This document shows, piece by piece, positions 3,843-55,600 of a stretch of 64,000 nt of DNA; the stretch's first letter is position 1; every line of letters starts with the position of its first letter. A program made the position numbers and the translations under genes. Location: positions 24,430,501 to 24,494,500 of the forward strand of contig OY727094.1 of assembly GCA_963402885.1 (NCBI GenBank), written 5' to 3'. The DNA comes from Antedon bifida (lineage: Eukaryota > Echinodermata > Crinoidea > Comatulida > Antedonidae). The notes beneath the pieces are model-generated. The model did not search any database and was not told the DNA's origin. It was given only the letters and a program-made list of their open reading frames with translations.

Positions 3843-4960
3843 ATGGAGGAAACTAGAATAAAAATTGTATCATTCAACTGCAAATCATACAAGTCAAGGA
3901 AGAAGGAGTTACATGATCTATGTGACACACACGATATTGTTTGCATACAGGAGCACTGGTTGCTTCATGAAAATCTATCTGAATTAAGGGATGTACATCC
4001 AGATTTGAATTGCTATGCTACATCAGCTGATGATAGCACTAAATTGCCCATTAGCCGTCCATACTGTGGTGTCGCCATCCTGTATAGAAAAGCTTTTCAA
4101 AGTATAGTGAGGCGTTTTAACTGTGAAGACAAGAGACTAAGAGCAATTGAGCTTGGTTCCGGTGCTGAAAAAATACCTACCTTCCGTGTGGTGATAATAA
4201 TTGTGAGAATATTGATGATTACTTGAGTTATTTGGGTAAAATATATTGTCTCATGTCTGAATACAGTACCAGCAATTCTTTCATTGTTGGAGACTTTAAT
4301 GCGGACCCTCAAATATCTTTCGGACATGAGCTGTTGGGTTTTTGTGATGAAAATGTTATTCATGTTGCTGAAGTTTATTCATGGATTCTAACACGTTTAC
4401 ATAATGTTAGTGATTCATATGGATCTACTGCATGGTTGGACCACATTCTTTGTTCATCCAGTGTATATAATAAGTTGAGCCACATGCTAGTTATTCTGGA
4501 TTATGTTGGCTCAGACCACTTCCCAATCAGTTTTGAATACGTCATCGATATCAGTGAAGATGCTACCTGTGGTGATAGTACCGGTAGTTCTTTTGTAAAT
4601 GTCAAGTGGGATAATGTTAATGGTGTTTCAGTTGAGAAATATCATAAGCGTACCGAGGCTCTTTTAAGTGATGTTGTCTTTGACTTAAATGCTTTTGCTT
4701 GTAATACACAGGGATGTGACTGTGAGATACATCGGGATGCCATCTCTAAGTTGTATGATGACATAATTAGTTCATTTAAGGATGCTTCTGATTCCTGTTT
4801 ACATCAGGCTAAGCGAAGAAGCTTTGATTTCATCTCTGGATGGACTGAAAATGTCAAGGACCTGCATGAAATTGCAAGGGAAAGTTTTCTTTTATGGGCT
4901 ACAAATGGGAAGCCAAGAGATGGCCCTTTCTACTATGAAAATTACCAGGGCACAATTTAG
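3843..4960 (+). pseudogene. LINE A endonuclease region (APE/EEP type), frameshifted
   Basis: Starts MEETRIKIVSFNCKSYKS, the opening strand of an exonuclease-endonuclease-phosphatase domain, with IVCIQEHWL as the catalytic Glu motif. A frameshift near 4175-4185 moves the frame to the one that reads IYCLMSEY, then FIVGDFNADP (GDFN motif) and YVGSDHFPISFE (SDH motif). The last part (to 4960) is the linker before the reverse transcriptase and contains a Cys-rich patch. It is a fragment of a jockey/CR1-like non-LTR element, dead because of the frameshift and stops. Confidence 0.85.
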
Positions 4961-10310: not shown

Positions 10311-10982
10311 GTGAAGAAAATAGCCCGCTATCAACAACACTTGACATTTACGCATCGTTGCAAAGATAACGGTATCACACCATCAAGCCTCCGGATCAGC
10401 TGCCCGATAAATACGGAGAAAGCCAGAAACATCATAAGAAAAGCCGAAAAAGATCTAGTAGGTGAACGTATCCGGGTAGTAAAGAACAAAATTAATGTTC
10501 TTGAACGTAAATCTGAATTGCAAAAACAAAAACTAGAAACACTGAATACCGATGACCGTCGCCATGTTGATTTACATATAGTAAACAAACGCGAATCAGA
10601 GGGAACAAAAACCAAACAGAGACATAAAGTAAAGCTCGAACGTCTCAAAGTTAAACATGAAACAAAACAGAAGTCTAACAAATTAACGGAACCCGACCTT
10701 AGCGGTACACAACTCAAAAAATGGCGTGAAAAATGGGTTAAAAACATCTCAAACAGAGTCCTTTCCGAGCCACAACAAAAGTTGCTCGCTCGAGGGTTGA
10801 ATTTTGCAGTGTCGGTTGACAAAATACCACATGAAGAATACATCGTTGCTTGTGAGTCAGTTTGTTCTAAACTACCAACGGAGGATGCTAAAAGCCTCAG
10901 AACAGAGATAGCAGGTATGTTAAAATCAGCAAAACCTCCCAAATCTAACATCTCAAAACAAGAAAGAGTTGCTCTTAATTAA
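10311..10982 (+). pseudogene. Penelope-like element, N-terminal region
   Basis: A 223-codon frame upstream of the Penelope reverse transcriptase. It is strongly basic and coiled-coil-like (KNKINVLERKSELQKQKLE) and ends SNISKQERVALN. This matches the N-terminal part of Penelope-like proteins. The frame stops at 10982. The next codons of the usual junction (LKKDKEIMVMGADKG) are read in another frame from about 10990, so a small indel near 10977-10990 separates this piece from the catalytic part. It could instead be a separate short ORF, but the direct continuation across the shift favours one broken protein. Confidence 0.7.
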
Positions 10983-11008
10983 ATACATTAAAAAAGGACA
11001 AAGAAATA

Positions 11009-25400: not shown

Positions 25401-25672
25401 CCTTACGTAAATTGATATAAATAGATATAGAGCAGAGCCGTTTATCTGGTCGGCCTACTCTAATAAATATTAATTCTTGTAATTTTTCAATATGCCTACT
25501 ATTATACAAATGTATTTTTTTTTTATGTTCATTTTTCAATTAAGTATGAAATATTAGAAGTAATATACATATCAGTTTCGGTTACATTTTTCAGCAACCA
25601 CTGAATGATTAGCAACTACAGAGTGCATTTTTTCAATGGATGAGTAAGTTATTTCTTTAACCTGTGGGAGAA

Positions 25673-25680: not shown

Positions 25681-28600
25681 GTAAGCTTTACATTTTTATA
25701 TCCAACAAACTTGTAATATTATAAATAGTTCAAAGAAAATTGTATTTATTATTGTTTAGAAACATGAAAAATAAACATATTAACATTATCGACCGAATAT
25801 TCTTGCCATGATGCATTTTTATCTTCTTTTTTTTCAGATACATATTGCTAAAAGCTGTAAGAAGATATAACATAGGCTTGAAAGAAATTGAAGAAATATG
25901 TAAGAAATATCCACATCTTGTGAACTCCGTCGATCAGGTATAGAAACTATATTTATATAATTATACAATCCAAATATTTTAAAAGGATATTATTCACACT
26001 GAACACTGAATCCAGCGGATTAATAGACATACAGTAAATTGACTTTGCGGTCAGCGGATTAATACATACAACGTTCGGTATGAGCTTTCTCATAAGGATT
26101 AACCGGAGCTTCAAAAAGCTCTTCAGAGATACTTCTAATTGTTTTGAATATGATGTAACTTTTTTATAAGTTATACTAGCTTTTCAAGTGAATTTGACTT
26201 ATTTATGAAATAATACATCCTGCAAAAATTAACTAAATCTTTGCAAAGTATGTTATACTAAAAAAAATATGATATAAAACGTTACGGTGAAATTAAGTGA
26301 GTGAAAAACAAGAACCCTTTTATAAACTGTTGATTAATGTGTATGGAAACATTTATTAGTAAACAATAACAGACACAATCTACTCTACTAATAGACTATA
26401 ACTGCGGCCTCACTAGACACTTATTTGAGTTGAGATAACCCGTAAAAGAAAAAAAACGGAAGGCGTGTAATCAAGCCACAATAGAGATAATTTATTATAT
26501 AACTTCTCGATAGTATGACATAACATGTAGAAATCGCAATACAACTAAGACCTATGGTCTATACGCTAGTATCGTGAGATTTCTATTATACGCCACATGA
26601 TATTTCATGCAAATTATTCCAGATGAGCATACCTTCAACGACAATAACATAATTTATTCATTAACTCAGTTACACATACTGCCGTTACATTGCTCCCTGC
26701 AATATTTACACAAATCTTTTCATATTAGATTATTTTATCTGTTTTTTTGTATTATATCACTGTTCAGTTTTACCATTGATAGGCCTGTCTAACAATTATG
26801 CTTTGCGACGTGTTGACTCCTTTAAGGGAATGAACATCCAATACATTTAATGTGATTTAGAGTTCATTTTATCTGTCTGTTAATAAAACCATACTGAAAA
26901 ACAGTCTTATCTACATTAGAGTGGAATAAGCGAATATATTTTACTTCTGAAGCAACAACTTTACCCGATTCGTCATCAAATTAATCGGCCAACCGCCTTT
27001 GATTGTTAAGAACTACCTGATGAAGAAATGTAGAACTACTCACTCATCCGGTATCTGAAATCAATTGCTTACTGTAGCACGCACGGTTCTACTGACTGTA
27101 TCACTTGGATTAGAAGATGTTTTCTATGGAAGTTGCATCGCTGATTTTTTGTACCCGGTAGCTACATAAACTTTATATTTTTTTAGATTTTTAGCAGATA
27201 CGTGACCACTACTTTTCACAAGCATCTGATATATAATGAATTTCTGCCTGCTTGAGTTCTCCGAACCCTTGTGGTTTGTAGCATCGACTGACTTGTAGTT
27301 TTCCAGCAGATAAACGCATGTCTTCATACCACTTGGATTATATTTTTATTTTAGAATAAAAATATCTTTTAGGAATAGAAAATTCTGCTCCAAGTGATGT
27401 AATGAGAGGAGAATGTCGAGGATTCCCTATCCAAACTCCAAGTATCATTAATTTAATTCGTTAGTGGCTGAGAGTAAGCCAAATAGATTATGAAAAATTA
27501 AACAATGTTATGAAATTCAACATAGAAAAGCGCAACAATGAGCGATTTGGGTCAATGATGTAAAACTTATAATTATGTATAAAAGGATTTGGCAACATGG
27601 CATGCTCAACAGGTCAACAATATTTTTTATTTAAACATTTAAACAAAGGCGAGGCTTATTGAACACAATTCTATGAGATAATAGGTTACACTCTCTATAA
27701 GCTCCAATATTTCACACGCATTCAATATAAATTATGTTGGAATATAATGGAAGAATACTTAATTAAAATTACAAACATAGACACATTGTGACTAAACTAA
27801 GACTAGGAATATTATAACTAGAAAAAGGAAGATGGAATCGTATTAGGCCTAATAGAAATGATAGATGCAAATTATGCTCTCTACAATCAATTGAAGATGA
27901 ATTCCCTTTAGTTTATTCAGATAGTAGAACTAAGTATATGTTTTCCTCTTACACAAATAATCCATCTAAATTAAAATATATTGTCCTTATGTCTACTACA
28001 AATACTGATCTCATTACTAAGCTCAGAAAATATTTTTAAACGCACTCTATACATTGTATGTATTGCCGTCTGGTTTATTGAAACTACCCCCTCTATAATT
28101 ATTTAACGGCAAACTTGAGGGAAAGAGACGAGATACATTGTTGTTGTTGTTAAATCTCACAGTTGATAAATAGTAGTTTGTTATAATTGTTGTTTGATTC
28201 AATTTTTTACGCATTTATTGTGATTTTGAGATCCTCATCTCTCTTCCAAGAAGTTTTTTTATGACACTGGCCAAATGTGGTGAAACAGATTTTGCTACTT
28301 GTTTATTTGTTAGATAAACGAGCATGTTATGCGACGTTGGCAAGCATCCACAGCTAGGAAAGGTGAAATACAGTACAAAGAGGCAATGAAGTAATGTATA
28401 TGAGAATGTTTGATAATAACTATGTAGGCCCTAAACCACAATACTTTAATTTGTGAAAAATGTAATAATGATGAAATACCAACAACCTCTGAGAAATGTA
28501 AAACAAATTGTCCTGCTTGTCACATATTAAATAAATATAGTAAAGATATGATAAAATTGGTAAAATACAGACAGTACGACACTTTATTGATACATATTGG

Positions 28601-31600
28601 TAGCGTTGACAGAGATTTACTATTATTTAAATCATTAACGTTATTATTCGTAGTAGTTTAAAAAAATTGGTAAAATACAGACAGTACGACACCTATAGGA
28701 TAAAATACAAATGCAACAAATATAACAAAAAGGCAAATGTCATAATATAACTCGAAACATACACATAGCTTGCATTCAAAAGCCTCATATAGCAAGTGGG
28801 AGAAACGAATTACGTAATTTTTTTTTCCATTGTAGGATGAAGGTGGGATGGATAATATATTAATAATATAACAAAATATTTATTGAATTCACCGTAGAGT
28901 GTATTGTTGGAATTTGCAATTATGTTTTGAAGGCGGTTTGGTAAATACAGATCTACAAATTCAGTATTCATTAAAGTTTACTTGAATCTAAACGAAATAT
29001 CTAGGCTTAGGAATATGTTTATTAATTTAATAAATTATATTATTTAAAGTTATTAACCATCACCATATGATTTACGATATTTAAACATCATGTACTGTCA
29101 GCTGTCGAATTTGAGATTAAACAAGACGCTAAAATCAATACTTTCAAAATGATGTGCATTGCTAAATCCTCTGCATGTCTTAATTGAAATCAGTTAGTCA
29201 TTATTTTCTTAATACCAGGTATTTCTATATAATTTACATTCACTCTTAATGAATTAGAAAATTAATGTAGAAAAGGATAAATATGAAATATAATAATACT
29301 AACTTTCTTCTTTCCAGGATGGAAACACACCGCTACATGAACACGTTCAGTTTGGCAGTGGTAATGTAGAGATAGTGAACAGTCTCATAGCTCATGGAGC
29401 ATCAATCACGGCAACAAACAATGTAAATTACTCTTATACAATGATTTAAAAATCATTAACGTAATTATTTGTATATAGTTAACACTACAAGTTAATTTAC
29501 ATTATCTCCCGTTATAAGCAAACCATAGATTCGTTTAATGTGTTTTCATTGGGAAACAATATATAGTTATTATCAAAGCAAAAATACAATTTAAAATATA
29601 TTAAAAATCGTGCAGCTAACGATAGCATGGTCTCAACTAACTACCGTACACTAGCTAGTGAGATTTCTAATATACGTAGGCTAACATGGTATTTTATGCA
29701 AATTTTTCCCGATGAGCATATCTTCAACAACAATTATATAATCATTAAGTCAGTTACACATACTGCCGTTACATTGCTCCTTGCAATATTTACACCAATC
29801 TTTTCATATTATATTATTGCATGTGTTTTGTTGTATTATATCACTGTTAAGTTTACCATTGATAGGCATATCTAAAAAATATGCCTTACTACTTGTTGGC
29901 TCCTTTAAGGGGAATGAACATTCAATACATTTAATGTGATTTATAGTTCATTTTATCTGTCTGTTATAAAACCATTCTGAAACAACTTTGTAAACATTAG
30001 CGTGGAATGAGCAAATATATTTTAGTTCTGAAGCAACAACTTTACGCGATTCGTCATCGACTCGGCCAACCGCATTAGTTTGGTAAGACCTACATGGTGA
30101 ACAAATGTAGAACTACTCACTCATCCGGTATCTGAAATCAATTGCTTACTGTAGCACGCACGGCTCTACTGACTATATCACTCGGATTAGAAGATGTTTT
30201 CTATGGAAGTTGTATCGTTGTTTTTTTAGCTGGGGTAACTTTGGCTTTAAATAATAGTAGAGAAATAGAAGGAATATTATCAGGAGTTATCAATCTTAAA
30301 TACGTGCATTGACCACATACTATTCACTAATGAATTTCTGCCTGCTTGACTTCTCCGAACCCTTGTGGTTTGTAGCATCGACTGCCTGACTTGTAGTTTT
30401 CCAGCGTTTGAACAATTTCTTCATACCACTTGGATTATATTTTGATTTTAGAATAAAAATATATTTTAGGAATAGAAAATTCTGCTCCAAGTGATGTAAT
30501 GAGAGAGGAGAATGTCGAGGATTCCCTATCCAAACTCAAAGTATCATTAATTGAATTCGTTGTGGCTGAGAGTAAGCCAAATAGATTATGAAAAATTCAT
30601 TAAACAATGTTATGATTTTCAACATAGAAAAGCGCAACAAAATGGGTCAATGATGTAAAACTCATTATGTATAAATGGATTTGGCAACATGGCATGCTCA
30701 ACAGGTCAACAATATTTTTTATTTCAAAATTTAAACTAAGGCGAGGTTACACTCTCTATAAGCTCCAATATTTCACACGCATTCAATATAAATTATGTTG
30801 GAATGGAAGAATACTTAATTAAAATTACAAACATAGACACATTGTGACTAAACTAAGACTATTATAACTAGAAAAAGGAAGATGGAATCGTATTAGGCCT
30901 AATAGAAATGATAGACTATATGCAAATTATGATCTCTACAATCAATTGAAGATAAATCCCTTTAGTTTATTCAGATAGTAGCACTAAGTATATGTTTTCC
31001 TCTTACACAAATAATCCATCTAAATTAAAATATATTGTCCTTATGTCTACTACAAATACTGATCTCATTACTAAGCTCAGAAAATATTTTTAAACGCACT
31101 CTATACATTGTATGTTTGCCGTCTGTCAAAGTTTATTGAAACTACCCCCTCTATAATTATTTAACGGCAAGCTAGAGAGGGAAAGAGGCGAGATACATTG
31201 TATTGTTGTTGACGGTTTTGCTTGCTCTCAACTCAAGCATGCATTTAAATCTCACAGTAGATAAATAGTAGTTTGTTATTATTGTTGTTTGATTCAATTT
31301 TAACGCATTTATTGTGATTTTGAGATCCACTGGCCAAATGTGGTGAGACAGATTTTGTTACTTGTTTATTTGTTATTTGATAGTTAAACGAGCACTTTAT
31401 TAGTCCTATAGGGCCTAGGCCTACTAGGCTAGGCCTAGGCCTACTAGGCTAGGCCTAGGCCTAGCGGGTGTGTAGCGGTGGGCTAGCAACGTTGTACGTT
31501 TTATTTACGCCGTGGTTAGGATTCCGGCACCGGAACTCAACTTCTCAGCGTTAGGGAATCCGACACGCTATTGCGCATGCCCAGAGCGAAGTAATTATAG

Positions 31601-34600
31601 CTTCTTGCACACAGAGTATCGAGAGTAGTACTGTAGTAGTCGGAGTGTTAGGAGATTGAGTTAGTCGTCGGGCGAGAGCGATTGATGAAACTTGGCCTAG
31701 GCCATATATGAATTAATAATTAAAATACGACTACGCCGCGCGTTAAACTAATTATTATGATATTGATAAGAATCAGTATCTATCTAAGAATTGTAATGCT
31801 GTAATTTTAATAGACAGAGGTAGTATGAAGTTCGGAACGCCAAAAACACAGGCCTGCCCTAGTAGTATCATAAGGTAACGGGACGATTCGGCCCTGAGAC
31901 GATTCGGCCCGGGACGATTCGGCCCTGGGACGATTCGGCCCGGGACTATTCGGCCCGGGACGATTCGGCCCTGAGACGATTCGGCACACTTACATTTATC
32001 GGCTTTGATAAGCATTTATAAGCATAAAATAAGCTTTTTTCCCCAAACTTTATTTTCAGAGAGACTATTGGGTAGCACTACTAGGGATAAAGATGCAATA
32101 AAGCAAACATTTTGAAAACATTGTCGAAAATAATCATTTTTTAGTCACGCGAACGATGTAAACAAGTTACGCCCTCTGTTGGCCGCTTGGCGAATGCACG
32201 AAATAAACAAGGTTTTCGAAGTAATAAATTGAATATAAAATTACGTTTTTTTAGTAATTTATTATATATATTATATCAACTTTGTCAATATCAATAAAAT
32301 ACGGATTGTTAAACACCTTTAAAAACTTGATAAATAAAAAAAAAATGAATATGAATTTGGTCTAAAGTGAGACGTTTCGGCCCACAAAGTGGGATGTTTC
32401 GGCCCAAAAGTGGGCCGAATCGTCCCACCAAAAGTGGGCCGAATAGTCCCGGGCCGAATCGTCTCAGGGCCGAATCGTCCCTGAACCGTATCATAAACGA
32501 GCTCTCTCTGCTGTCTGTTATGTATCCGGGGTTCACACTACTATACATCAAGGTAGAAAGGAATGGACTGTGTACTATTTTTAGCATCATTTAACTAAAC
32601 CTCGAAAAGAAGCCCATAAGCTCTTGGTTGGGCTTCTTTTCGAGGTTACTTTACTATTTAGGCTTCTTTTCGAAATTATTGCAGAATAATTCAATTGTAC
32701 ATTTTTTGATATGATGGCATATGATTCTTTTTAGAGAAGCAGAGTTTAAGAAGATACAAATGCAATCCATTTGGAAACAATAAACTGTATAATAAATATG
32801 AGGCTTAGTTATAATTTCAAAGGGTTGTAATGTCATTGAACATGATGATACAGTATGTGCACTCTCATCATTCTGCATCAGATCTGTTATTAAATCACCC
32901 AACTAACTTGTAACCTTGTGTGTATTGTATATTTCTATTTCATTCACATACAGTTTATCTGAAAAAGATTTCGAGATGGGATTCTTTTTTAGATTACTAT
33001 TCTGTACTATGACAATTGATTAACATTATTATAGGTCGTTGACATTGATTTATTCATTTTGAAATAAACCGACTCTTTAAAACATGAACAAATGAATTGC
33101 TACATACAAATCAACTATAATAAAACCATTTAATGCCAAGATTTATCCTGTACGATCCATATTATTAAAGACACATTACCTGCAATTTGTAAAAAATAAT
33201 GCATTTAAATATTACATGAAGTCTGGTAAGTTAATACAATAAAAAAAGAGAAAAACATGATACCTGAAATGTATAAGTTTGGAAAGAGATTGTGTAACTA
33301 ATTCGTTGATTGATGCATGTCAGTATAGGCCTATATATAGCTTAATTTATTTTAAACATTTTTAACTGTTTAAAGACTTTAAAAATGACTACAATAGGCC
33401 CATAAATATAGGATTAATTTTTACAAAAATTGCAGTTTGGGAACTGAAAATATACTGAAAAAATGCAGGTAATCTGTTTTTAAACCAAATGCATGAATGT
33501 GATTAACTGAGCTTTAAATAACAAACTTTTGGTTTGCGTAACATCTTCGACAAAACCAGTATTTGGTTTTAGGCGTTTTCTTAATTGAGGCACATAAGAA
33601 ATGATGCCACTTTAGGCAAGCATCGCAGCATATGCTCTCCTCATCCACTTCGTCTTTACAAACATTACACATCCACGTTGGACGATTTCGGACCTTTCTG
33701 ACAACTTCTGTTACCAACAACCAAGCATCACTAGAAAAATAAACCCTCAAGCGACACAGGGTTACGTTTTCATCGATGATAGCAGGATTTACAAATTCTG
33801 GTCGAACTTCAACTTCACTTTCATCAACTAATTCTCCATCAAGGGGTTTCTTAATGCTTTTTTTCGAAAGCAACCATGAGAGCATAACTGTAAAAAAATC
33901 AAGTTGATTATGTCATTTATACAGACAGATATATTTATACAGATGATCACTACTTTCAACTAAAAATGTTTTAGAGTATTGCTGTATTAGTTTTGGGACA
34001 TATGATTATATGTAAAATACTGTTTAATGCAATATGTTTTTTTGTTTATGTCTGTTGCTAAATTTCTTACTTTTGTCTTTTTCAGCTGGTTGCTTTTTTA
34101 TAAATGGCACAGGTTTTCCACTTGATAACGGAACATTCTTTCTAGAGCGCTTTGATGGTAATCCAATTACCGTTAAATCTGCACCCTTTGGTCGTCCACG
34201 CTTTCGAATCACAGGTGGAATTTTTACTTTAGAAATGTCTGAAATTATAATGGGTATTGTAAATAACAACATTGTTTTGGGAACCCAAGGATTGAGAATA
34301 CTGCAGCATTTTTAAAAAATGTATTACTTACCATGGTCAGGTACAGACTTTACAACCTTTTTATTTTGATTGTTACTGGATAGGATGTCACTCGATGTAG
34401 TTGCCATTCCATTAATGTCTGAAATTATAATGGGTATTGTAAATAACAACATTGTTTTGGGAACCCAAGGATTGAAAATAATGCAGCGCTTTAAAAAAAA
34501 AAATTAATTACTTACCATAGTCAGGTACAGACTTTACAGCCTCTTTATTTTGATTGTAACTGGATGGGGCGTCACTGGATAGGGTGTCACTGGATGGGGT

Positions 34601-37600
34601 GTCACTAGATAGGGTGTCACTGGATGTAGTTGCCAGCATTCCATTAATGTCTGAAATTATAATGGGTATTGTAAATAACAACATTGTTTTGAGAACTCAA
34701 GGATTGAGAATACTGCAGTTTTTTTTTTAATTAATTACTTACCATAGTCAGGTACAGACTTTACAGCCTCTTTATTTTGATTGTAACTGGATGGGGCGTC
34801 ACTGGATAGGGTGTTACTGGATGGGGTGTCACTAGATAGGGTGTCACTGGATGTAGTTGCCAGCATTCCATTAATGTCTGAAATTATATTGCACTGGATG
34901 GGGTGTCACTGGATAGGATGTCACTCAATGTAGTTGCCGTTCCATTACTTTTTGTCTCATCTAGCATTTTTTTAAAAGAAAATTAAAATAATCTTAAAAT
35001 AGTATTTGACTGGCTAAAAAAAACGTCAAGAAGCGACAAGAGTATCAAATTTACCATAAACTTGTACCCCTACATATCTCCCATGGCTCCATGCATCACA
35101 TATTTTTTTTAAAACATCATACTGGTGGTGAAACTGACGCATTGGTGCCTCCGAAACTATAGATGACAATGTTTTGCAGAGCTTGGACACCTCACCATAT
35201 TTTTGCCGTGCTGACAGTATAGCAGATTGGGTATTGTCCACAACAACATTGCTTTGAAAACTTGTATCATTATCACGAAAGTTGTTGTTTACTGCATGTT
35301 TGGATTTGTAGTAATTAATAGACCAGCGTTGGTTGCAAAGGCCCTTGTAAAATAAGTCTTCGCCTTCAATATTTCTCACAGCAAATATATGGCGACATGG
35401 TAACTGCATGGAAGATCTAAAAAACAACCATAGATTAAACATGTGGCCATTTATATTTTTAACAAAGAAAGATCATCAGTCATGATGTAATAATGATAAA
35501 GAAGAAGATGATGATAATGAAGAAGATGATAATGAATAATTATAACAATACTGGTGACGGTAATTTTAATGAGTGGTGTAATTACCTGAAAGTACATTCA
35601 CATTGCAAAGTTGACACCTTCAACCTCAATGACTTGGACTGTATGATATACTGCTGACCATCATCATGCTTCTTCACATTTGTTAATTTTGCTGCCAATT
35701 CTAACTGCTGGACAACAAAGCCAAATGCATATGGTGTGAGCCAATCCATATACTTTGCTTGAGGTGAATCTGCACTGTAGATGCTCACAGAGCGCGTTTG
35801 GAAAACTGTCATAGCTTTGTGGTCTTGGGCTTGTCTGGTCGATTTGAGAAAGATCATAAAATCATGGTAGAATTCATCTAGGCTTGCATGTCGTCTACAC
35901 ACTTCTTTAATCTTCTGATTCAGCGATTCCAGTCGATTGTTTGTTCTGTTAAGGAATGTTAAGTTTTCAGACTTGAGCCCTTCCACCCACTCATGGTGGT
36001 TATCATGCCAGTTGTCCTCAAAATATTCAACAACACTGGTCATGCCTGTCATTTTTAATGACTCGTAAGCACAAGTGTATTGTTCTTCAGACTTGGCATA
36101 CACCATCTTCTGGAAAATCTCTAAACTTAGATTCCTCTGGTCAGCAGTGATGCCCATCTTTGCTGTGGTAACCTCTCTGCGAATTGTCCTAAGAACATGA
36201 AAGAGGCAAATCAATAAGTTGGCATCTGGAAACTCACTCTTTAAGACGAGCCTTTCAGTAAAGTCCTTGTCAGACATTATCGATTTTGTTTTTGTCCAAT
36301 CCGGATTGCTTCTCTTGAATATCTGTATCATTTTGGCAATAACATTCTTCTCCTCACTTGATAAAAGAAAGGTGGCAAATATCTCACTTTGCCCATTGCC
36401 ATCCTCTCCCATCATAATGTATAATGGCATTCGAAGCTCATTTAGTTTATATGTGGCGTCGATGAAAATAATTTCGGGGAAAGCAGAAAATGACTCTTTC
36501 ATTGATGTGTCTTGATAGTAGATTCCAAGCAAATTGTTTTCACTGTCCACTGCAATCTCTATGGTTGAACCTAAGATCGAAAACAAATCAAATTAAAGAT
36601 CAAAGAGGGATAAGCGACCATAGGGCTCTAAGTTTCGAAAACCCAGTTAGGAATAAATCAAGGCAAGGTAAATTGAAATGGTCAATGAATGTTGCAATTA
36701 TTTGTTACTAATACTAGAAATTTGATTTTGTAAAAATAATATTCTAATGAATTGTAACTGTCAGGTATAGAATGTTGTTTTATTTAACATATTTTATTTA
36801 ACATAGTAGTTGCAATTTAATTTACTATATAAACTACATTTACTCAAACGACTAGAACGACAATCCAAGAGTGCACACCTCTGCCTACTGTAAAAAGTCT
36901 CCTACATAAGATTTCACGGGGAAAACAAAAAAATATTTTTGTGTCTTAATGCTGTGTGCGAATAAGCTAATTTCACTACAACCTGTATTTTCATTTTGAT
37001 AAAGATCTTGCTATTACTTTTTGAGTAATCCTGCTAACAAACAGACAAACAAACACACTCAATCGACTACATATAAATAGTAAAACTGCTAACACAATCA
37101 TTACATTTATAATAAAGCTCTGATTGTACTGTTTGAAATGAAAAGATTATTCATCTGACATACCTTCATTTTGACGTAATTTCTTAACCAGATTTTCAAT
37201 GTCATTCTTGTTTTCTCCATGGTTGAGAAATTTGGCCCTAATATTTGAAATATCGCGTCCTGTTACAACCTTTCCTGTTAAATTTTGTAGGTGGTCTTGC
37301 AAAACTCTTTTGTTTGCTCGCATCTCCAACAATTTTACAGCTTCATTTGTTGCTGCTTCACCCAGCTTTCTTTGTTGGGGAAGATGGGAAAAACCAACCT
37401 AAAAAAATTAAATTTAAAAAGTAATAATAATAGTAATAATAATTAATTAATTACAATGAAGAGAAAATCAGTCAGCATCAAAATAATTTGACACAGCAAT
37501 CAATCAGCTGGTGTGGAAGCTATAAATATATTTGAATTGATCTTCAAACTTTGTTTGGGTTTTCATTATTAAACTTGCATCTAAGTACCTTGTACATGTT

Positions 37601-40600
37601 AAAACAACAAATCCTTTAGAGATGAAATGTCACTGAACAGCTGTCTAGCGCCACCATTTCTGATAGATTTTCAGTACCGATACAGTTAATGGTTAATAAT
37701 AGGAGGCAGATGTTTTGAAATTATAATTAGATGTAATTTATATATTTTACCTTACTACATTCATGATTATGATTATTATTACAATGAGTCACTTTCAAGC
37801 AGTTACCATCTCCTGTAAGCGTCAGTTTAATTTCAGCTGCACAATCACTTTTAAATGTTCTGAAATATATAAACAAAGTTGCAACAATGTATGTAATTAA
37901 TCTTTCTACCAGAAAAGAAGAATCACAAAAATTAACAGTGTTCAACAATTTTCAAACTATAGTGTTGTATGTATAAAACACTAGCAAGCTAGAAACAAGA
38001 GAAGTCATTTGATCAATTGTTCATTTTGTTCCTATATGGGAGTGAACAATTTCACCTTTATTTTTCATATTTTTGGGGAAAATACAAATTTAAATGAACA
38101 AATATCATACATAAAGAAGAATAATATGGCATAAAAAAGTATAGATAGTAATCAAAATAAAAAGTAGATTTATTAATAAATAACATCATTATGATACGTC
38201 CGTCGTCAGAACTTTCAGATCGATTCAGAACTTATCATCAAAATATTTTGCGTATTAAACATTGTTCTAGCCTATCTATAATAATGAACTCCCTAGCCTA
38301 CTTAGGCCTATACTACTACTAGGCCTACTACTACTAGCTAGGCCTAGGCTATCCTAAAATACTTACTATGGTAGGCTATGTAGTGCTACTACTTAGGCCA
38401 CCTCTGTGGATTAGGTAGTAGGCTAGGGTGTAGGGCCTAGTAGTTGTAGGCATTGATATAGATATAGGCGGCCTAGGACTAGCCTAGTTGTAGTATAATA
38501 GTAGGCCCAGCCATGCCAAAATAGACCTAGTAGTAAGCTAGCCAGTAGTCCTAGACTAGGCCTAGTAGTAGTAAGCCTAGCTAGTAGGCCTAGGCTATCA
38601 TCAGTATCTAGGCTAGTTAGAATAGTAGACCCAGCTACCAGCAGTAGTGGATTCAGGTGAATCTTTTGAGTCATGTCTGTTGTGTATGAAACTGTGCGTT
38701 GGTTCAATTAATTGACGAAAAAATTATATAGAACTTTATGATGCATCCCTACCTTTGGTTTGGCCGAATGCCTTTAGATTTCGAAGTGAATTTTTTTCCA
38801 CCTTTGATACACGAAAAAACTAAATACGTATACTTCAAATTTTCATTGATTTTTCGTTGTTTCTGAAGTCTTTTCAATGCAGCATTAACTGTTCTTGAAT
38901 CTTTGATATAATATTGAGTATATGTACGCCTTTGGAATAGTTCCAGGTCACGCTGAATTTCACTAAAAGAGTGGAATTCTTTATCAACTGGAAACAAATC
39001 CGCCATGATGGACACTCTCTACAACTGACACGGAGAGAGCGAAGAACAAGATCGATTATAGTGTGCGAATCTCTACCGCCAAAACACATTTTTATTGGCG
39101 CAAACTTTTTACACATGCGTATTTCAAGAAATGTACGAAAGTGAATAGCGTAGCGACCCCGGCTTCCCGATTTTTTCACTCATCATACGCGGCGGCTATG
39201 TGTATGAAATCTTTATTTTGTACTTGAAAAATCATAAAACTATTCATGTAATTATGTTTCATAATTATATGAAGTTTATATATGAATGAAGCAACCACTT
39301 TTTTTTAAATAATTACGAAATAAACAGGCCCACTGGTCACATCTAGCTGGTACTGTCTAGGCCTAGTGGAGTGGGCATATCTATCTCGGCTAGTCCTATA
39401 TATAGTAGCTATACATTACAGCATTACGATTCTTAGATAGATACTGATTCTTATCAATATCATAATTAGTTTAACGCGCGGCGTAGTCGTATTTTAATTA
39501 TTAATTCATGTATGGCCTAGGTCAAGTTTCATCCATCGCTCTTGCGCGACGACTAACTCAATCTCCTAACACACTCCGACTACTACTACTCTAGAGTAGT
39601 AGCTCTCGATACTGTGTGCAAGCAAAGATCTTGTGCAAGCTTATAATTACTTCGCTCTGGGCATGCGCAACAGCGTGTCGGATTCCCTAACGCTGAGAAG
39701 TTAAGTTCCGGTGCCGGAATCCTAACCACGGCGTTTTATTTAATGCTGTTGTGTTGCATTTCTTTCTAGTTTTCACCTGATTGTAAGAAAGTACATTAGG
39801 CCTAATAAAGAATAGTTTCCGAAATGTTATAGTGTGTTTCTTTATTGACCTTACCTCGGTTTGGCACCGGCACATGTATATTATTTCGGCCAAAGACCAT
39901 AAAATAAGTGTTTCTTGGATCATTCAAAGGAAAGAAAGAAATTAACCAACTGGTCCGTAAATTCAGATGCTAACGGGTTGTCTAAGTGTAAATTCTGCTT
40001 GCACATAGCCTGTAAAACTTTCATGTAAAGTACGGGAGCTGCGAATCCCAATGGATCATAAATCGAACAAATAATATCTAAAACAGTTCATCTATTATCT
40101 ATTTATTAGTATATTTTAGAAATACAAGCAACAAATAAAATAATTAACATGCATATACATGATAACTAGAAAATAAAGAGAAAGATTAAGAACAGAGACG
40201 CAGGCATTGGTAATATTAATAACTGATAATGATGCACTTGACCTGAAGTCAGTTTTCGGAAGCGTAAACCCAACAATGGATCGTAAAAACCAGCCGATCA
40301 GTGACGGAGGTGGTGGGTGGATTATGCGACGTTGGCAAGCATCCACAGCTTGGAAAGGTGAAATACTGTACTGTACAAGGAGGCAATGAAGTACTGTATA
40401 TGAGAATGTTTGATAATAACTATGTAGGCCATAAACCACAATATTTTAATTCGTGAAAAATATAATAATGATGAAATACCAACAAGCTCTGAGAAATGTA
40501 AAACAATTTGTACTGCTTGTCACAAAGAATAAAGATATGATAAAATTGGTAAAATACAGACAGTACGACACTTTATTGATACAGTTTGGTAGCGTTGACA

Positions 40601-43600
40601 GAGATTTACTATTATTTAATATCATTAACGTTATTATTCGTAGTAGTTAAACAAAAATTGGTAAAATAGAGACAGTACGACACCTATATGATAAAATACA
40701 AATGCAACAAATATAACAAAAAGGCAAATGTCATATAACTCGATACATACACATAGCTTGCATTCAAAAGCCTCATAGCAGATGGGAGAAACAAAATTAC
40801 GTAATATATTTTTTTTTTTCATTGTAGGATGAAGGTGGGATGGATAATAGATTAATAATATAACAAAATATTTATTGAATTCACCGTAGAGTGTATTGTT
40901 GGAATTTGCTGTTTTGAAGACGGTTTGATAAATACATACAGATCTACAAATTCAGTATTTATGAAAGTTTACTTGAATCTAAACGAAATGTCTAGGCGTA
41001 GGAATATGTTTATTAATTTAATAAATTATATTATTTATTATTAACCATCACTATATAATTTATGATATTTAAACATCATGTACAGCTGCACACCGCTACA
41101 TAAACATGTTTGGTATGGCCGTGGTAATGTAGAGATAGTGAACAGTCTCATAGGTCACGGAGCATCAATCACAGCAACAAACAATGTAAATTACAATGAT
41201 TTAAAAATCGTTAACGTAATTATTTGTATATACAGTAGTTAACACTACAAGTTAATTTACATTGTCTCCCGTTATAAGCAAACTCTAGATTCGTTTAATG
41301 TTTTTTCATTGAAAAAATGTATAGTTATCAAATTCAAAGCAAAAATACAATTTAAAATATATTGAAAATCGTATAGCTGTAGCGTTTTAGATTGAACAAG
41401 AGCCTAAATTAATACTTTTAAAATGTGTTTATTGCTAACCCGTCTGTATTATAATAATTTAAATCAACAAGTTGTATTATTTTCTTAATACCAAGTATTT
41501 CTATATAAATTACAGTCACTTTCGATGAACTACAAAATGAAATATAGAAAAAAAATGTATTATAATAATACCTGTATTCTTGAAAAAAATGCGTCAAGTT
41601 TAACACACCTCTACATAAACACGTTACGATTGGCCATGGTAATGTAGAGATAGTGAACAGTCTGATAGCTCATGGAGCATCAATTACAGCAACAAACAAT
41701 GTAAATTACTCTTTTACAATGATTTAAAAATCAATAACGCACTTTATACTCGTATTAGTTAACACTACAAGTTAATTTAAATTGTCTCCCGTTATAAGCA
41801 AACCTAGATTCGTTTTATGTGTTTTTCATTGGTAAAGTGTATAGTTATTATTAAAGCAAAAATACAATTTAAAATATATTTAAAATCGTGTAGCTGTAGC
41901 ATTTTAGATTGAACAAGATGCTGAATTAATACTGTGTTCATTGCTAGCCCGTCTTTATTATAATAATTAAAATCAACAAGTTGTATTATTTGCTTAATAC
42001 TAGGTCGTTCTATATAATTTACATTCACTCTTAATGAATTAGAAAATGAATGTAGAAAAGGATAAATATGCAATAAATACCTGTATTCTTAAAAAAAATG
42101 CATCAAGTTTAATCTAACTTTCTTCTTTCCAGTTTGGATACACACCTCTACATAGACACGTTGATTATGGCGTTGGTAATGTAGAGATAGTGAACAGTCT
42201 CATAGCTCACGGAGCATCAATCACAGCAACTGACATTGTAAATTACTCTTTTACAATGATTTAAAAATCAATAACGTAATTATTCGTATTAGTTAACACT
42301 ACAAGTGAATTTGTCTCCCGTTATAATCAAACCCTAGATTCGTTTATTGTGTTTTTCATTGGAATCAATGTATAGTTATTATCAAAGCAAAAATAAAATT
42401 TAAAATATATTAAAAATAGTGTAGCTGTAGCGTTTTAGATTGAACAAGAGCATAAATTAATACTTGTAAAATGTGTTCATTGCTAACCCTTCTGTATTAT
42501 AATAATTTAAATCAACAAGTTTTATTATTTTCTTAATACTAGGTTTTTCTATATAATTTACAGTCACTCTTAATAAATTACAAAATGAATGTAGAAAAGG
42601 ATAAATATGTAATATAATAATACCTGTATTCTTGAAAAAAATGCGTCAAGTTTAATCTAACTTTCTTCTTTCCAGCTTGGATACACACCGCTACATAGAC
42701 ATGTTATTGTTGGCCGTGGTAATGTAGAGATAGTGAACAGTCTGATAGCTCACGGAGCATCAATCACAGCAACAAACAATGTAAATTACTCTTTTACAAT
42801 GATTTAAAAATCATTAACGTAATTATTCGTATTAGTTAACACTACAAGTTAATTTACATTATCTCCCGTTATACATTACATTATTCGTATTAGTTAGCAA
42901 TATAAGTTAATTTAAATGAGCTCCCGTATAAACTAACCTTGGATTTGTTTAATTTGTTTTCATATATACGTATTTTAAATATCACAATAGCTGTCTCATT
43001 TAACAAGACGCTAATACCAATACTTTCAAAATTATGTTCATTGCTAACACCTCTCCACGTCCCAATTAAAATCAACTAGTTGTATTATTTACAGTACTGT
43101 TATACTGTGGTCTATCGTAGACAATTAACTACATATCCATTTACTTGACAATTTCTTGACCGTAGACCATCCAGACTATGATGCCGAACGAATAATGGCG
43201 CTTATGTGTATGTTTTTAACTCATTATGCGTGCACATGGCTCATAATAATACGATGTGACCCCGTTTACATTACTGAAGTCAATTTTTTACCCCAATTCA
43301 GATTTATCATCACACTTTCATTCTCTAATCGATAGACATATATGCTTGCAAACACGGATTCACATCCGTTGGACTCATTCCCGGCTGTCCACCCACCAGA
43401 CGCATTTCCAGTTGCCTCCAGTTTAAATAATTAGACTTGTATAATCGCCTACACCCGCCACATTCCCGGGTGTGCACTCGTCGGACCCATTCCCGGCCGC
43501 AAGTCCTGGCGATTTGGCTGGGATGATAATCAAAGTTACCTACTGAAAGACGAGTAGCCCACATTAATGTAATTATTTGTATTAGTTAACACTACAAGTT

Positions 43601-46600
43601 AATTTACATTATCTCCCGTTATAAGCAAAATAAATAAAAAATCGTGTAGCTGTACCGTTTTAGATTGAACAAGACGCTAAATGAATACTTTTAAAATGTG
43701 TTCATTGCTAACCCGTCTGTATTATAATAATTAAAATCAACAAGTTGTATTATTTTCTTAATACCAGGTCGTTCTATATAATTTACATTCACTCTCAATG
43801 AATTAGAAACTGAATGTAGAAAAGGATAAATATGTAATTTATAATAATACCTGTAAAAATGCGTCAAGTTTAATCTAACTTTCTTCTTTCCAGAATGGAA
43901 ACACACTGCTACATGAACACGTTGAACATGGCTATGGTAATGTAGAGATAGTGAACAGTCTCATAGCTCACGGAGCATCAATCACAGCAACAGAAAATGT
44001 AAATTACTCTTTTACAATGATTTTAAAAATCAAAAACGTAATTATTCGTATTAGTTAGCAATATAAGTTAATCTAAATGAGCTCCCGTATAAACTAACCT
44101 TGGATTTGTTTAATTTGTTTTCATATATAAGTATTTTAAATATCACAATAGCTGTCTCATTTAACAAGACGCTAATACCAATACTTTCAAATTTATGTTC
44201 ATAACACCTCTCCACGTCCCAATTAAAATCAACTAGTTGTATTATTTACAGTACTGTTATACTGTGGTCTATCGTAGACAATTAACTACATACTCCATTT
44301 ACATGACAATTTCTTAACCATAGACCATCCAGACTATGATGCCGAACGAATAATGGCGCTTTTGTGTATGTTTTTAACTCATTATGCGTGCACATGGCTC
44401 ATAATAATACGATGTGACCCCATTTACATTACTGAAGTCAATTTTTTACCCCAATTCAGATTTATCATCACACTTTCATTCTCTTATCGATAGACATATA
44501 TGCTTGCAAACACGGATTCACAACCGTTGAACTCATTCCCGGCTGTCCAACCACCAGACGCATTTCCAGTTGCCTCCAGTTTAAATAATTAGACTTGTAT
44601 AATCGCCTACACCCGCCACATTCCCGGGTGTGCGCTCGTCGGACCCATTCCCAGCCGCAAGTCCTGGCAATTTGGCTGGGATGATAATCAAAGTTACCTA
44701 TTGAAAGACGAGTAGCCCACGCGAACAAATTATACAATAACTAGATGCAGCAGTTAATTGCTTGTTGTAATTGTAGGAGTAGAACGAATACAATCTTAAA
44801 TGTGTTTAAACCTTAATGCTAGTATCTAAAGTGTAAAATGTATATTATAATACATAAAACTTTCTGCTTTCCAGAAGGGAAACACACCGCTACATGAACA
44901 CGTTTGGCTTGGCAGTGGTAATTTAGAAATAGTGAACAGTCTCATAGCTCATGGAGCATCACTTAAAGCAAGAAACAAGGTACCGTCAATTAATGCAAAA
45001 TTGCATTTGCATTTTTAATTGTGCTTCTTAAGCAAACCATTACGCCTATATCCAAGGTATACTCTTATTGTGATTAGGAGTATGTTATCAACTTCAAATT
45101 ATTTTGTACACACAGTAATCATCATCTTGATGGAGCCAAAGAATATCAGAAAGGGCGACAATTATTTAAAGCCATTATTTTAGCATGGTGGTAAAATATC
45201 ATAGATGCGATAATTAACATGTACATTTAATCAGTATCCCTATTCTTTTTTAATATTTTTCAATAGCATTTTTTAAGTGTATTCAATCACATTAAACATT
45301 AAATGATAGAGCAGTTAATGTTGTTGTTGGTTATTGCAAAGGTAGGTCTACTCAGATTGTGTCATATTAACTTATGAATGTGTTTTTATTACAATCCAGA
45401 TTACGTAAATTTCTAGTACTAGATGGTATCTAGGTCGTGCCCACAGATGTTTCTTGAATACATAGTAATGTTCAGCGTTAAAAAATGGCGATTTCAAATG
45501 TGTATCGCAGGACCAATTTCGTTTACAGGAACGAATAAATAGGCACGGTGATTTATGTACTCAACTATAATTAGCACCCTAGGAATTACTTCTGAAAGAG
45601 GAACTTGTCACAAAATGAGAACAATATTAATTGTTTGAGTCAAATTTAAACAAACTTAATTTGTGTTTTGTATGTAACATTAGGGTTGTGGGATGGGGAA
45701 TAGGATGAGTGCAAAGAGGGACAATTTTAAATATATTCTTTATCCATTCAGTAACGAAATATTAATTATTTTCATGTTTTACAAATAATATACAACTAAA
45801 CACAGTAAAACATTGCGATGTAATACTTTGTTAAAAATCTCACCATCATAGTCAATTGAAATAGTACAGCACATGTAATGATACACAAATACGACGTTTA
45901 TTTTTTTTTTGTAATGACAGTATTAATTAATACAAAAGTTGAGAAGCAACTGTCAGTAATAAAGTTTATTTGTATAGGCCTATGTGTTTATATAATGTAA
46001 AACAGTTTGTGAAAAACAATTTTATTCGGGGCAAATCGTAAATTCGCTTAATCGTCAATAAATAAACAATTATCTAATTCAACTTAATTATTAAGGCTAA
46101 TTCATTCATTCATTCAATCTTTTATTTCGGAATCTCTGGTCCATAGAAAGTAAAAATTACATGTAAATGAAATAAAATAAACGAGACTAATTACTACTAC
46201 TCATCTCAGGATGGCATTCCACCTTCAATTGTTTCTTAGAGCCAATTCATACTTTAAGTTGGTTCCTTAAGCCACCAAAGTAGGCCTAGTTCTGCGTTTA
46301 GGTCATGTACTGTAGGCCTATCCTATACTGGCATTACAACGATACTCATGCCATTGAGGGGGTGGGTGGTGGTGTGGGAGGTGGTTTAACTGCAATAAAG
46401 TTGATTGTTCAGATATAGACGGCGACTGAAAACGCTAGCTCATTATCTGCTAAAAAAATACCTATATCCAACCTCCGCAGCACAGATTTAAAAAAATGGA
46501 TTGAATTTCTGTTATGGGTGTACTTGCCTTTTATGTTATTACGAGGGAATAGACAATTATGGAAGAGAGATTGGAATGATCCATTTATCGCAAATCAATA

Positions 46601-52600: not shown

Positions 52601-55600
52601 GGGAATGCCATATAAAATTAAGCAGTTCCGTCTGGAATATTGTTCAGATTCGTCCATGTCATCCTCCATGCTATCAATTGTGGCCTGGGCTATTTGCTCA
52701 GTTAAATCTGCAGCCAGTTGTGTTTTAATCATTGTAGTAACCTTAGTAGCAATGTTAGACATCATATCCGAATTATCATTGAAAAAACTTTGTATTTGAG
52801 TGAGTATTATGTCCGCCACTTCACCGTCAACTAGGCCGCCATTATCCGCATTCTTCCTATCAAGGTTGGAATTCGCGCTATTTTCCTTTGTGCTGGTGTC
52901 AGGTGATTGGTCCTTCTTCGCTTTAGTTGTTTTCGGCATAGCTGGGCTAGCTTCTCAAATGATTAAAAACTTATAAAAAACAAGAGTAAATATTCAGAAA
53001 TATATAGCACAGGTAGAGAAACAATGTAAAGCAGAGTAAATTATTGTTGTATCGGTGAACAATCAAGTGAAATGAAGTAGCTTAGTGATAAACCCGGAGC
53101 TACGATTAGACACGTCCATTCAGCATGACGTTCAAATGTTCATATGTAAATTTATATATAGATTAGTAAAGTAACAGTGGATAATACTTTAATACATTTT
53201 TTGTATAGCGAGGACAAACACCAGCATCTGTTTTGAAGGATAATGATTATATCTCCAAAGAGAAGAAAAATAAGATATTGAAGTTACTTGACAGTAAGTT
53301 TGTATTAATACACTTTTCTTGAGTTTTTGCATCATGACTATTATTATTAAACTGTGTATTACTAATGACACACATTGAACATTGTGCTGAACCTTTGAAC
53401 TGTATGAATGTGACGAAGATGAGCTGTCATAATGACATTTTTAAAACTATGGCTTTGAATTGATTCTTAAGTGTAAAATATTTGTATTTGTTTTTGTATA
53501 TTTTATTTACATTTATTTTAATTGCAATTTAGTTCCAGTTGAAATATTAGCTAGAGGTGAGAGCGCCATTAGATCATTTCAAAATGAACTTGAAAATGGT
53601 GAGATTGCAGTTGTAAATTCAAGATGTATGTTTCTCGGGAAAGAAGGTGCTGGAAAAACTAGTTGTGTAAAGGCCATGCTTGGACAAAGGTAACAAAAGA
53701 GCAAAGTTATTTTATAAGGGAGATGCACCAATAAAATATACATGATCTTTATCAATATACAGCATTTATAATACAAGTTGAATAGTGTTTTTACCATTAC
53801 AATAGATGAAGTGCTCATTTATTTCAAATCGTGTATTCATGTTCTCTATAATAGTCATGGCATAACATTATCAGAAAATATACTAAAATCACTCTTTTGT
53901 TCTTTGAACCATTTAATAAACAACTTTATCTTTAATGCAATTGACAACATTTAAAGAGTTGTTTGGTTTACCTTTTTTATAGTAAGTTTGGTGCTGAGTA
54001 TTTTGATATATAAAATACAGAAATTGGCATTAGTGAGGTTCTTATTATAAATAGTTGATACCTGAAGTTTCGTGTTTGAGTAACGGGTTTTTATTCCTTT
54101 TCGAATAATAATAAATATTCGAAAAGGAATGAAAACCCGTTACTCAAACACGAAACTTCAGGTATCAACTATTTATAATAATGATTATGATGATGATGAT
54201 TATAATGACGATGATGATGATGATAATGATGATGACGGTGACATATTGACGGTGATGGTGACGACGCTGTTTATGCAAATGCTGCTGCTGAAGGTTTCAG
54301 TTTGTTTTAAATATCTCATTTGCTTATTTACTTGTGTTTTTATTTTAAATATATTAATATTTTAAGATGAACTATTGGATACATTCTACTTTCTTTAAAT
54401 CCAACCTTTTAGAGTTCATTATTCATTATTATAGATTTAAATCCAACGAACCATCTACTGATGGTATTGTTATTACAACGACATTGTTTCAAGCAATTGG
54501 AAAAGACTGTGACAAGTGGAAGAAGGAAGATATTGACGGTAAGTTTGAAAAGAAGAAGTCAACCATACCAAATGACACATTAACTGTTCGTTCAAAGTGG
54601 GCTGTCCCCACAAAAGAGAGAAACTCTCTCTTTCTTCTTCCTTCAACAAACGCATAATTTCCTGCTTTGGCCAATTTGTGTATAGAGATTAATTAGTATC
54701 ATAATAAAGGTAAACACGTACCGGTAAGGTACATTGGAAATAATATTTTTATTAAATACTTAAATGCATTTTGGTCTATAATTACATAAATGACCTACAT
54801 ATTATTTTATTTACAGGTGATTATGATGATTTGATTTCATTTCTCTAATATTAGTATTTTAATTTATCTCTATGATGTGTACCGTACAACCTTATTTCAC
54901 CTTGCTTTTTTTTTTACAGTTATGGAGCTCAACAAGAAAATACGGGAAGATGCACTTGCAGAAAAACTTGCAACACAGTTAATAAAGGAAGAAATGGATG
55001 ATGGTGAAGGAAGTTCAGATATGTCAACATCTAAATCTGATTCCCAACTGGAATCATCAGCAATCTCTTCTTTGGATCTAGACAAAACAGGTATGATGAA
55101 TATCTACTACAATTTCTATTACAAGGGTATTTTTAAACAAACTGTATTGGTGATCATAATCAAGTTAAGATGCACTCATACAGTATAGAAACATACATAA
55201 AAGTGAAATGTTAGACATTTTATATATTGTATCAAAAATATGTTATAATGAATTGCAGGAACATCCCAGAAAACGCCTGAACACATCACAGCAAAGATGA
55301 AAAAACAAACGTCAACTGAAACCAAATTACATTTACAAGGTGCAGTTTCAACATCTTCAATATCTGATCCCGAATGTTCAATATCTTCTGACTCTGTGTC
55401 TTTAGTGGAAGGTTTGAGTATTTTTTTTTATACTTTTAAAGTGTTCAAATAAACATCAGTAATATAATACGTACTGACGATCATTTTGCATAAATAAAGT
55501 TTGGTTGTTTCGCATTTTAATCACTTTACTATAACAAGTCATCACGCGAATTAATAGCAACAAATTAATTTAATGACAAGAAAAGAAATTAAAATTTTAG

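What the first reader, a model, noticed from the sequence alone, without database searches (positions are those of the whole stretch)
29318..44979. Ankyrin exon array that varies only at ligand-facing positions
Seven 105-bp-type exon copies (five usable, two damaged) code 35-residue repeats. Positions 16-30 (NVEIVNSLIAHGASI) are almost invariant, even at DNA level, while residues 1, 3, 8, 11, 12 and 14 differ: QF/S, WY/R, TI/H, DY/V, IV/R, EH/Y, WL/S at 11-12/14. In ankyrin repeats these are the beta-turn and helix-1 residues that contact ligands. With duplicated introns, this looks like a recognition surface diversified by exon duplication plus selection, joined to a Roc GTPase switch. An innate-immune receptor-like role is inference.
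Basis: partly seen in the sequence, partly recalled or inferred. Interest (0 to 1): 0.78.

Follow-up and report, generated by a model that had tools for sequence, protein, structure and literature searches.

The report
Crinoid ankyrin exons diversifying their binding surface
A feather-star gene carries a row of very similar ankyrin exons that differ mostly at a few residues expected to touch a binding partner, the pattern of a recognition protein under strong pressure to change, as in some fungal and algal candidate immune receptors.

Summary
The window is crinoid DNA; its best protein matches are Antedon mediterranea. Seven 105-nt ankyrin exon copies lie at 29318-44979; two have lost their acceptor. 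They belong to a 17-exon model (25636-63505, all introns GT-AG, 738 codons, no stop): N-cap, five ANK, linker, Roc, start of COR. Relatives carry COR and sub-threshold death-effector-domain matches.

Codons 1, 11, 12 and 14 (not 3; 8 marginally) fit omega 14-16; 0 of 100 null simulations reach the observed ratio. In four young copies these codons differ at 60% of bases, introns at 5%. Third bases of codons 12 and 14 never differ (0 of 42 comparisons). Positions taken from DARPin design are enriched. Paralogue P0003 shows a similar, less clean pattern.

Correction: the near-identity of codons 16-30 mostly reflects young copies (introns are nearly as alike), plus moderate purifying selection.

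Closest precedents: fungal NLR repeats and brown-algal LRR-ROCO exon arrays. A new variant of that kind, in an animal. Immune function, splicing, copy-number variation and structure remain untested.

The parts
25636..25643 (+). start-codon exon (ATG GAT GA), donor gtaagt
   Evidence: read by eye, checked; frame matches the start of paralogue P0003 (MDE...)
25838..25937 (+). N-terminal cap exon of the ankyrin domain
   Evidence: tblastn of the P0003 N-terminus (residues 5-35), 72% identity, E 2e-11; splice sites
29318..29422 (+). ANK exon E1, intact, phase 0/0
41081..41185 (+). ANK exon copy E2, acceptor and exon start lost by deletion
41596..41700 (+). ANK exon copy E3, acceptor lost by deletion
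42133..42237 (+). ANK exon E4, intact
42676..42780 (+). ANK exon E5, intact
43894..43998 (+). ANK exon E6, intact
44875..44979 (+). ANK exon E7, intact; terminal-repeat type (SLKARNK end, shared with P0001 and P0003), intron flanks unrelated to the others
53209..53293 (+). linker exon between ANK array and Roc
   Evidence: tblastn of P0001, 96% identity over 28 residues; splice sites
53533..53689 (+). Roc exon with P-loop GKEGAGKT
   Evidence: Pfam Roc 42.6 bits on the gene model, cut-off 27
54435..54538 (+). Roc exon, switch-I region
54920..55090 (+). acidic/Ser-rich insert in Roc, exon 1
55259..55411 (+). Ser-rich insert in Roc, exon 2
55764..55937 (+). Ser-rich insert in Roc, exon 3
56316..56521 (+). 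Roc exon with WDYAGQ (G3)
56886..56975 (+). Roc exon
57086..57280 (+). Roc exon with ATHMD (G4-like)
63260..63505 (+). end of Roc / start of COR; gene continues past the window
   Evidence: COR-A in P0001 starts at residue 552, this exon aligns to 493-576

Best explanation
This is an ANK-ROC-COR (Roco) gene of a feather star whose ankyrin domain is a modular binding surface. Shown: one 105-nt phase-0 exon per repeat has been duplicated; in four of the copies gap-free intron flanks are 93-97% alike and the other 31 codons about 92% alike; codons 1, 11, 12 and 14 have been driven apart at the amino-acid level. Inferred: those residues (beta-turn tip, end of helix 1 and the helix 1-2 turn) form a concave paratope that reads a fast-evolving ligand; adding, losing or exchanging exons changes the surface without breaking frame; ligand binding switches the Roc GTPase, and in complete paralogues the signal passes through a C-terminal death-effector-like domain. 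The likeliest role is an intracellular non-self or pathogen sensor, working like fungal NLR repeat domains and brown-algal LRR-ROCOs.
For: Positive selection (own implementation): M1a vs M2a 2dlnL 43.2 (exon tree, 7 copies), 47.5 (star, 7 copies), 29.0 (star, 5 intact copies); naive empirical Bayes posterior >0.9 at codons 1, 11, 12, 14 in all three fits; omega 14-16. 0 of 100 null simulations on the star tree reach the observed value, maximum 8.45. Codons taken from DARPin randomised positions (1, 3, 11, 12, 33, 35), not from these data though I had seen them: omega 6.2 against 0.48 elsewhere, above 1 at p=1e-6; 10 of 100,000 random 6-codon sets reach the observed variability with 7 copies. 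Neutral yardstick: flanks 0.048, selected codons 0.597; intron-calibrated omega 48.5, or 24.3 if the intron time is doubled. Codons 12 and 14: first base differs in 34 of 42 comparisons, second 26 of 42, third 0 of 42. Paralogue P0003: six repeats on the same scaffold; between genes, five intact window repeats against five of the six P0003 repeats, identity 0.10 at 1/11/12/14 and 0.85 over 30 scaffold positions. Roc matched. COR-A above cut-off in 10 of 13 relatives scanned, DED below cut-off in 8 of 13. Precedents: PMC4986451, PMC1805685, PMC11378527 (passages and two sections).
Against: No ligand, expression or immune phenotype is known. Only seven copies from one array give DNA, so the site models are small; recombination among copies violates the tree (an inferred tree and a star agree, but this is not a full control). 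The exon's third positions outside the four codons (0.11 in four copies) differ more than the introns (0.048), so the intron yardstick may be about twofold too slow. In P0003 (five repeats counted) positions 16, 23 and 31 are as variable as 11 and 14 (1.37 bits). DED matches lie below Pfam's cut-off (25-32 against 35.9 bits) and outside the window. Codon 14 is not a DARPin binding position. Repeat identity (about 76%) misses the fungal 85% threshold. None of the 17 Anneissia relatives scanned has a homogeneous array by my quick profile, so the pattern is not general for crinoid Rocos.
Confidence: 0.6

Rival explanations
1. Relaxed constraint: surface codons are simply free to drift, while the scaffold is held by folding constraint.
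For: The variable positions align to exposed positions of designed ankyrin proteins. The rest of the exon is under some purifying selection (omega 0.26-0.48).
Against: Drift should not exceed the neutral rate: 43 of 72 base differences at codons 1/11/12/14 in four copies, against a neutral-simulation mean of 3.5 and maximum 23 in 200,000. Third bases of codons 12 and 14 are unchanged.
Confidence: 0.05
2. Old diversity preserved: the repeats are old and differ anciently; gene conversion homogenised introns and scaffold while selection kept the binding codons distinct.
For: E7 has unrelated introns yet 0-2 of 12-13 fourfold sites differ from each of five other copies (homology to E1 spans 138 nt), so exon-sized homogenisation is likely.
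Against: Third bases of codons 12 and 14 are identical in all seven copies, so those codons look young; codon 11 does vary at its third base, and codon 1 in E7.
Confidence: 0.22
3. The array binds a fast-changing self partner (gamete, allorecognition, endogenous element) rather than a pathogen.
For: The same selection signature drives fungal allorecognition (PMC1805685, passages); nothing here is pathogen-specific.
Against: A death-fold-like C-terminus in relatives and a multigene family fit defence at least as well.
Confidence: 0.25
4. A targeted mutator (template- or A-directed, as in diversity-generating retroelements) hits these codons.
For: First and second bases vary and third bases do not at codons 12 and 14; several variable codons are of AAN type in some copies.
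Against: Six fourfold sites with A as third base (codons 4, 6, 27, 28, 29, 32) are unchanged in all seven copies, against one varying of five non-A sites; codons 31 and 33, left out of that count, each have one copy with a third-base change from A. No template was searched for. Protein-level selection explains the base pattern.
Confidence: 0.03

Closest known systems
Fungal NLRs with internally conserved ANK/TPR/WD repeats (Podospora NWD family; HET-D/HET-E)
   Same: Similar repeats, concerted evolution, a handful of positively selected codons per repeat on the concave or interaction face; the ANK case is included (PMC4986451, passages and section 13); four codons per WD repeat (PMC1805685, passages)
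   Different: NACHT-type switch, not Roc; here one exon per repeat; identity about 76% here against their >85% criterion
Brown-algal LRR-ROC-COR (ROCO) genes
   Same: Roco switch, one repeat per same-phase exon, exon duplication, M1/M2-type selection at concave residues, multigene family (PMC11378527, passages and section 11; Zambounis 2012 known only through it)
   Different: LRR (72-nt, phase-2 exons) instead of ANK (105-nt, phase-0); splice variants reported there, untested here
DAPK1 (kinase-ANK-ROC-COR-death domain)
   Same: Order ANK, ROC-COR, C-terminal death-fold domain (PMC4917528, passages)
   Different: No kinase in the model or the 13 relatives scanned; sub-threshold DED rather than death domain; diversified array
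PRDM9 zinc-finger arrays
   Same: Repeat variants differ mostly by nonsynonymous changes at ligand-contacting codons (PMC3890296, passages)
   Different: DNA ligand, coding minisatellite rather than separate exons
Dscam exon arrays
   Same: Tandem exons coding alternative recognition modules
   Different: No evidence of positive selection between paralogous exons (low power) and no gene conversion found there (PMC3236188, passages)

Membership tests
Roco (ROC-COR) family | Roc GTPase domain | tested here: met
   Pfam PF08477 42.6 bits, cut-off 27; P-loop, DYAGQ and THMD motifs readable (motif names recalled)
Roco (ROC-COR) family | COR domain directly after Roc | tested here: inconclusive
   window ends in the first part of COR; P0001 has COR-A (55.6 bits, cut-off 35.3) just there
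Ankyrin repeat proteins | ANK consensus repeats in tandem | tested here: met
   Pfam Ank_2 109 bits on the gene model; repeats are 35 residues, two more than the 33-residue Pfam model
DAPK family | N-terminal kinase | tested here: not met
   no kinase match in the 738-residue model or in the 13 relatives scanned
DAPK-like ANK-ROC-COR with death fold | C-terminal death-fold domain | tested here: inconclusive
   outside the window; DED at 25-32 bits, below the 35.9 cut-off, in 8 of 13 relatives scanned
Fungal NLR/STAND | NACHT or NB-ARC domain | tested here: not met
   Roc found instead, no NACHT/NB-ARC in the Pfam scan
High internal conservation repeats (fungal criterion) | >85% identity over at least 100 residues | tested here: not met
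   mean amino-acid difference among 5 intact repeats 0.243, so about 76% identity
Brown-algal-type ROCO exon arrays | one repeat per exon, uniform phase | tested here: met
   five 105-nt phase-0/0 exons
Brown-algal-type ROCO exon arrays | positive selection at repeat codons | tested here: met
   codons 1, 11, 12, 14; their concave position rests on alignment only, and 14 is in an insert
Brown-algal-type ROCO exon arrays | LRR repeat type | tested here: not met
   ankyrin repeats
Brown-algal-type ROCO exon arrays | alternative splicing of array exons | not testable with these tools
   no RNA data

The most novel reading that the evidence does not exclude
An animal intracellular receptor repertoire built from swappable one-exon paratope cassettes: each 105-nt phase-0 exon carries its own four-residue specificity, cassettes are exchanged between paralogous ANK-Roco genes and array positions, and array length or splicing combines them, giving a crinoid counterpart of fungal allorecognition NLRs and brown-algal ROCOs that arose independently.
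Probability: 0.22. Interest if true: 0.88.

Novelty: new variant of a known kind. Interest (0 to 1): 0.7.

Why it matters
In the papers I saw, fungi and brown algae are the cases where intracellular receptor repeats stay alike while their contact residues diversify; internally conserved repeats were reported as rare in metazoans (0.8%, PMC4986451, section 13). A crinoid ANK-ROC-COR gene doing much the same would be convergent evolution of a recognition device on a different combination of repeat and switch. Because selected codons stand out so clearly from a young scaffold and young introns, the array gives a sharp natural test of how such repertoires diversify, and it points to Roco proteins as candidate animal immune receptors.

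Tried and rejected
Relaxed constraint was rejected with the intron yardstick. An A-directed mutator was tested through fourfold A sites and not supported. Rfam found no RNA family in the window at gathering thresholds. Searches for further paralogues: (proteins of 271-863 residues) showed no Antedon protein beyond P0003 among the best 120 listed of 4055; one search showed three new ones, P0241, P0246 and P0277, among the best 120 listed of 3863. The quick ANK profile used for scanning and counting was built from five generic repeats and under-calls degenerate repeats: it missed the cap exon, and Pfam still finds ANKs in Anneissia P0008 and P0013. Literature searches (I saw the listings, at most 20 papers each) listed no report of this system in crinoids or other echinoderms; the library holds open-licence papers only. 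Zambounis 2012 is not held.
Full report
What is there. Seven copies of a 105-nt ankyrin exon lie on the + strand between 29318 and 44979. A quick profile scan of stop-free frames on both strands found these seven and otherwise only two weak matches of 5.9 and 7.4 bits. Five copies are spliceable; E2 and E3 have lost their acceptor by deletions. They belong to a larger gene. A cap exon at 25838-25937 and a linker exon at 53209-53293 were found by comparison with Antedon proteins, and with the Roc exons they give a 17-exon model from an ATG at 25636 to 63505, every intron GT-AG, 738 codons without a stop. Pfam gives ankyrin repeats (Ank_2, 109 bits) and Roc (42.6 bits, cut-off 27) on that model. 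The model was built from homology and splice rules, not RNA.

Whose it is. The best matches in a database of 5.8 billion proteins (7995 candidates scored) are Antedon mediterranea proteins: P0002 93% over 67% of the query, P0001 84% over 84%. Antedon is a feather star. No listed protein is marked as the window's own, so the species could also be a congener, or the gene unannotated. Of the 83 hits, 7 are named Antedon and 17 the crinoid Anneissia japonica; one search added three from Antedon among its best 120.

Selection. I wrote a codon model with classes M1a and M2a. Positive selection is favoured with 2dlnL 43.2 on an exon tree, 47.5 on a star with seven copies, and 29.0 on a star with the five intact copies. 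Codons 1, 11, 12 and 14 have naive empirical Bayes posterior above 0.9 in all three; codon 8 reaches 0.66 once; codon 3 does not. About half of the codons fit omega 0.00-0.07 in the same models. None of 100 simulations under M1a on the star tree reached the observed value; the largest was 8.45. For a set not drawn from these data (though I had seen them) I used the randomised binding positions of designed ankyrin proteins, recalled and then mapped through alignments: exon codons 1, 3, 11, 12, 33, 35. This set fits omega 6.2 against 0.48 for the rest and is above 1 at p=1e-6. It ranks first of 35 rotations, and 10, 2 and 90 of 100,000 random six-codon sets do as well for all seven, five intact and four young copies. 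Within the set, 3, 33 and 35 contribute less than 1, 11 and 12.

A neutral yardstick. E1, E4, E5 and E6 have alignable introns on both sides. I used 120 nt upstream and 65 nt downstream, gap-free columns only, and dropped E2, E3 and E7, whose upstream or both flanks are lost, damaged or unrelated. Over 146 flank columns the mean pairwise difference is 0.048; over codons 1, 11, 12, 14 it is 0.597; over the other 31 codons 0.077. With branch lengths fixed from introns, omega is 48.5 at the four codons and 1.65, not different from 1, elsewhere; with doubled intron time 24.3 and 0.82. Doubling is a fair caution, since third positions of the other codons differ at 0.11 in these copies. The anomaly is in the four codons. 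At codons 12 and 14 the first base differs in 34 of 42 comparisons, the second in 26 of 42, the third in 0 of 42. That is selection on the amino acid in young copies, and it speaks against old diversity merely spared by gene conversion. Codon 11 does vary at its third base.

Homogenisation. E7 shares only 138 nt with E1, its flanks do not align (0.43-0.64 difference), yet 0 to 2 of 12-13 fourfold sites differ from each of the five copies compared (E2 not compared). E7 is the terminal type, seen also at the end of the arrays of P0001 and P0003. Exon-sized exchange is the simplest reading; it is not proven.

Paralogues. P0003 has six repeats on the same scaffold. Over five of them (the sixth is one residue shorter and was left out) the most variable positions are 1 and 8 (1.92 bits) and 12 (1.52), but 16, 23 and 31 are as variable as 11 and 14 (1.37 bits), so the pattern is similar but less clean. 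Between the two genes, identity is 0.10 at codons 1/11/12/14 and 0.85 over 30 scaffold positions. P0246, P0277 and P0241 carry other fairly homogeneous ANK arrays whose variation, by eye, sits largely around the end of helix 1 and the following loop. By a simple profile, 4 of 10 Antedon proteins have several similar repeats (mean identity 0.74-0.87, raised in P0241 and P0277 by short stretches) and 0 of 17 Anneissia proteins do; amplification in the Antedon lineage is suggested, not shown. COR-A is above its cut-off in 10 of 13 relatives scanned; death-effector-domain matches appear in 8 of 13, always below Pfam's cut-off.

How it most likely works. Shown: duplication of one-exon repeats, diversifying selection at four codons, an open Roc reading frame. 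Inferred from ankyrin and Roco knowledge: the selected residues line a concave surface (DARPins bind by randomised positions on that face, PMC8229355, passage); ligand binding acts on the Roc switch; a death-fold domain signals. The role as a non-self sensor is inference, held at about 0.5-0.6.

Comparison. Fungal NLRs show the same signature, including ANK repeats with selected sites mostly on the concave face (PMC4986451, passages and section 13), and HET-D/E WD repeats with four selected codons (PMC1805685, passages). Brown-algal ROCOs show it with one LRR per exon (PMC11378527, passages and section 11). The present gene combines a fungal repeat type with the algal switch and exon layout, in an animal. 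It is not a fungal-type NLR (no NACHT) and not a DAPK (no kinase). Its repeats, about 76% identical, miss the 85% fungal criterion.

Limits. Seven copies are few; recombination breaks tree assumptions; the whole genome could not be searched and no structure could be predicted, so the concave mapping rests on alignment. Copy-number variation, splicing and function are untested.

Noticed in passing
54050-54173: Near-perfect inverted repeat (58-bp arms, 8-nt loop) inside a Roc intron (fold energy z -23), possibly a small hairpin transposon.
   Followed up: partly
44875-44979: E7 is homologous to E1 over little more than the exon; flanks are unrelated but fourfold sites hardly differ. Exon-sized homogenisation is unexplained.
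   Followed up: partly
33517-36592 (-): MULE/ZSWIM-type transposase (35585-36592) and a PHD finger ORF (33517-33912) in the stretch between E1 and E2.
   Followed up: no
10239-12787 (+): Long ORFs of what looks like a Penelope-like retroelement (name recalled; only a weak RVT_1 match below cut-off).
   Followed up: no
3837-4957 (+), 48136-51630 (-): Endonuclease/reverse-transcriptase retroelement fragments.
   Followed up: no
26574-31210: About 3-kb tandem duplication around E1 (26574-28151 vs 29658-31210, 87-89%), and 28327-29095 repeated before E2 (91%).
   Followed up: no
49674-50580: 191-nt tandem repeat, 4.7 copies.
   Followed up: no
P0001 residues 1-15: The public gene model appears to start with an ANK exon read in another frame (METHRYIDTFGLAVV), so arrays of this family may be under-annotated.
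   Followed up: no
P0246, P0277, P0241: Other Antedon proteins with similar ANK repeats and longer, variable helix 1-2 loops; P0246 and P0277 are ANK-ROC-COR with sub-threshold DED matches.
   Followed up: partly
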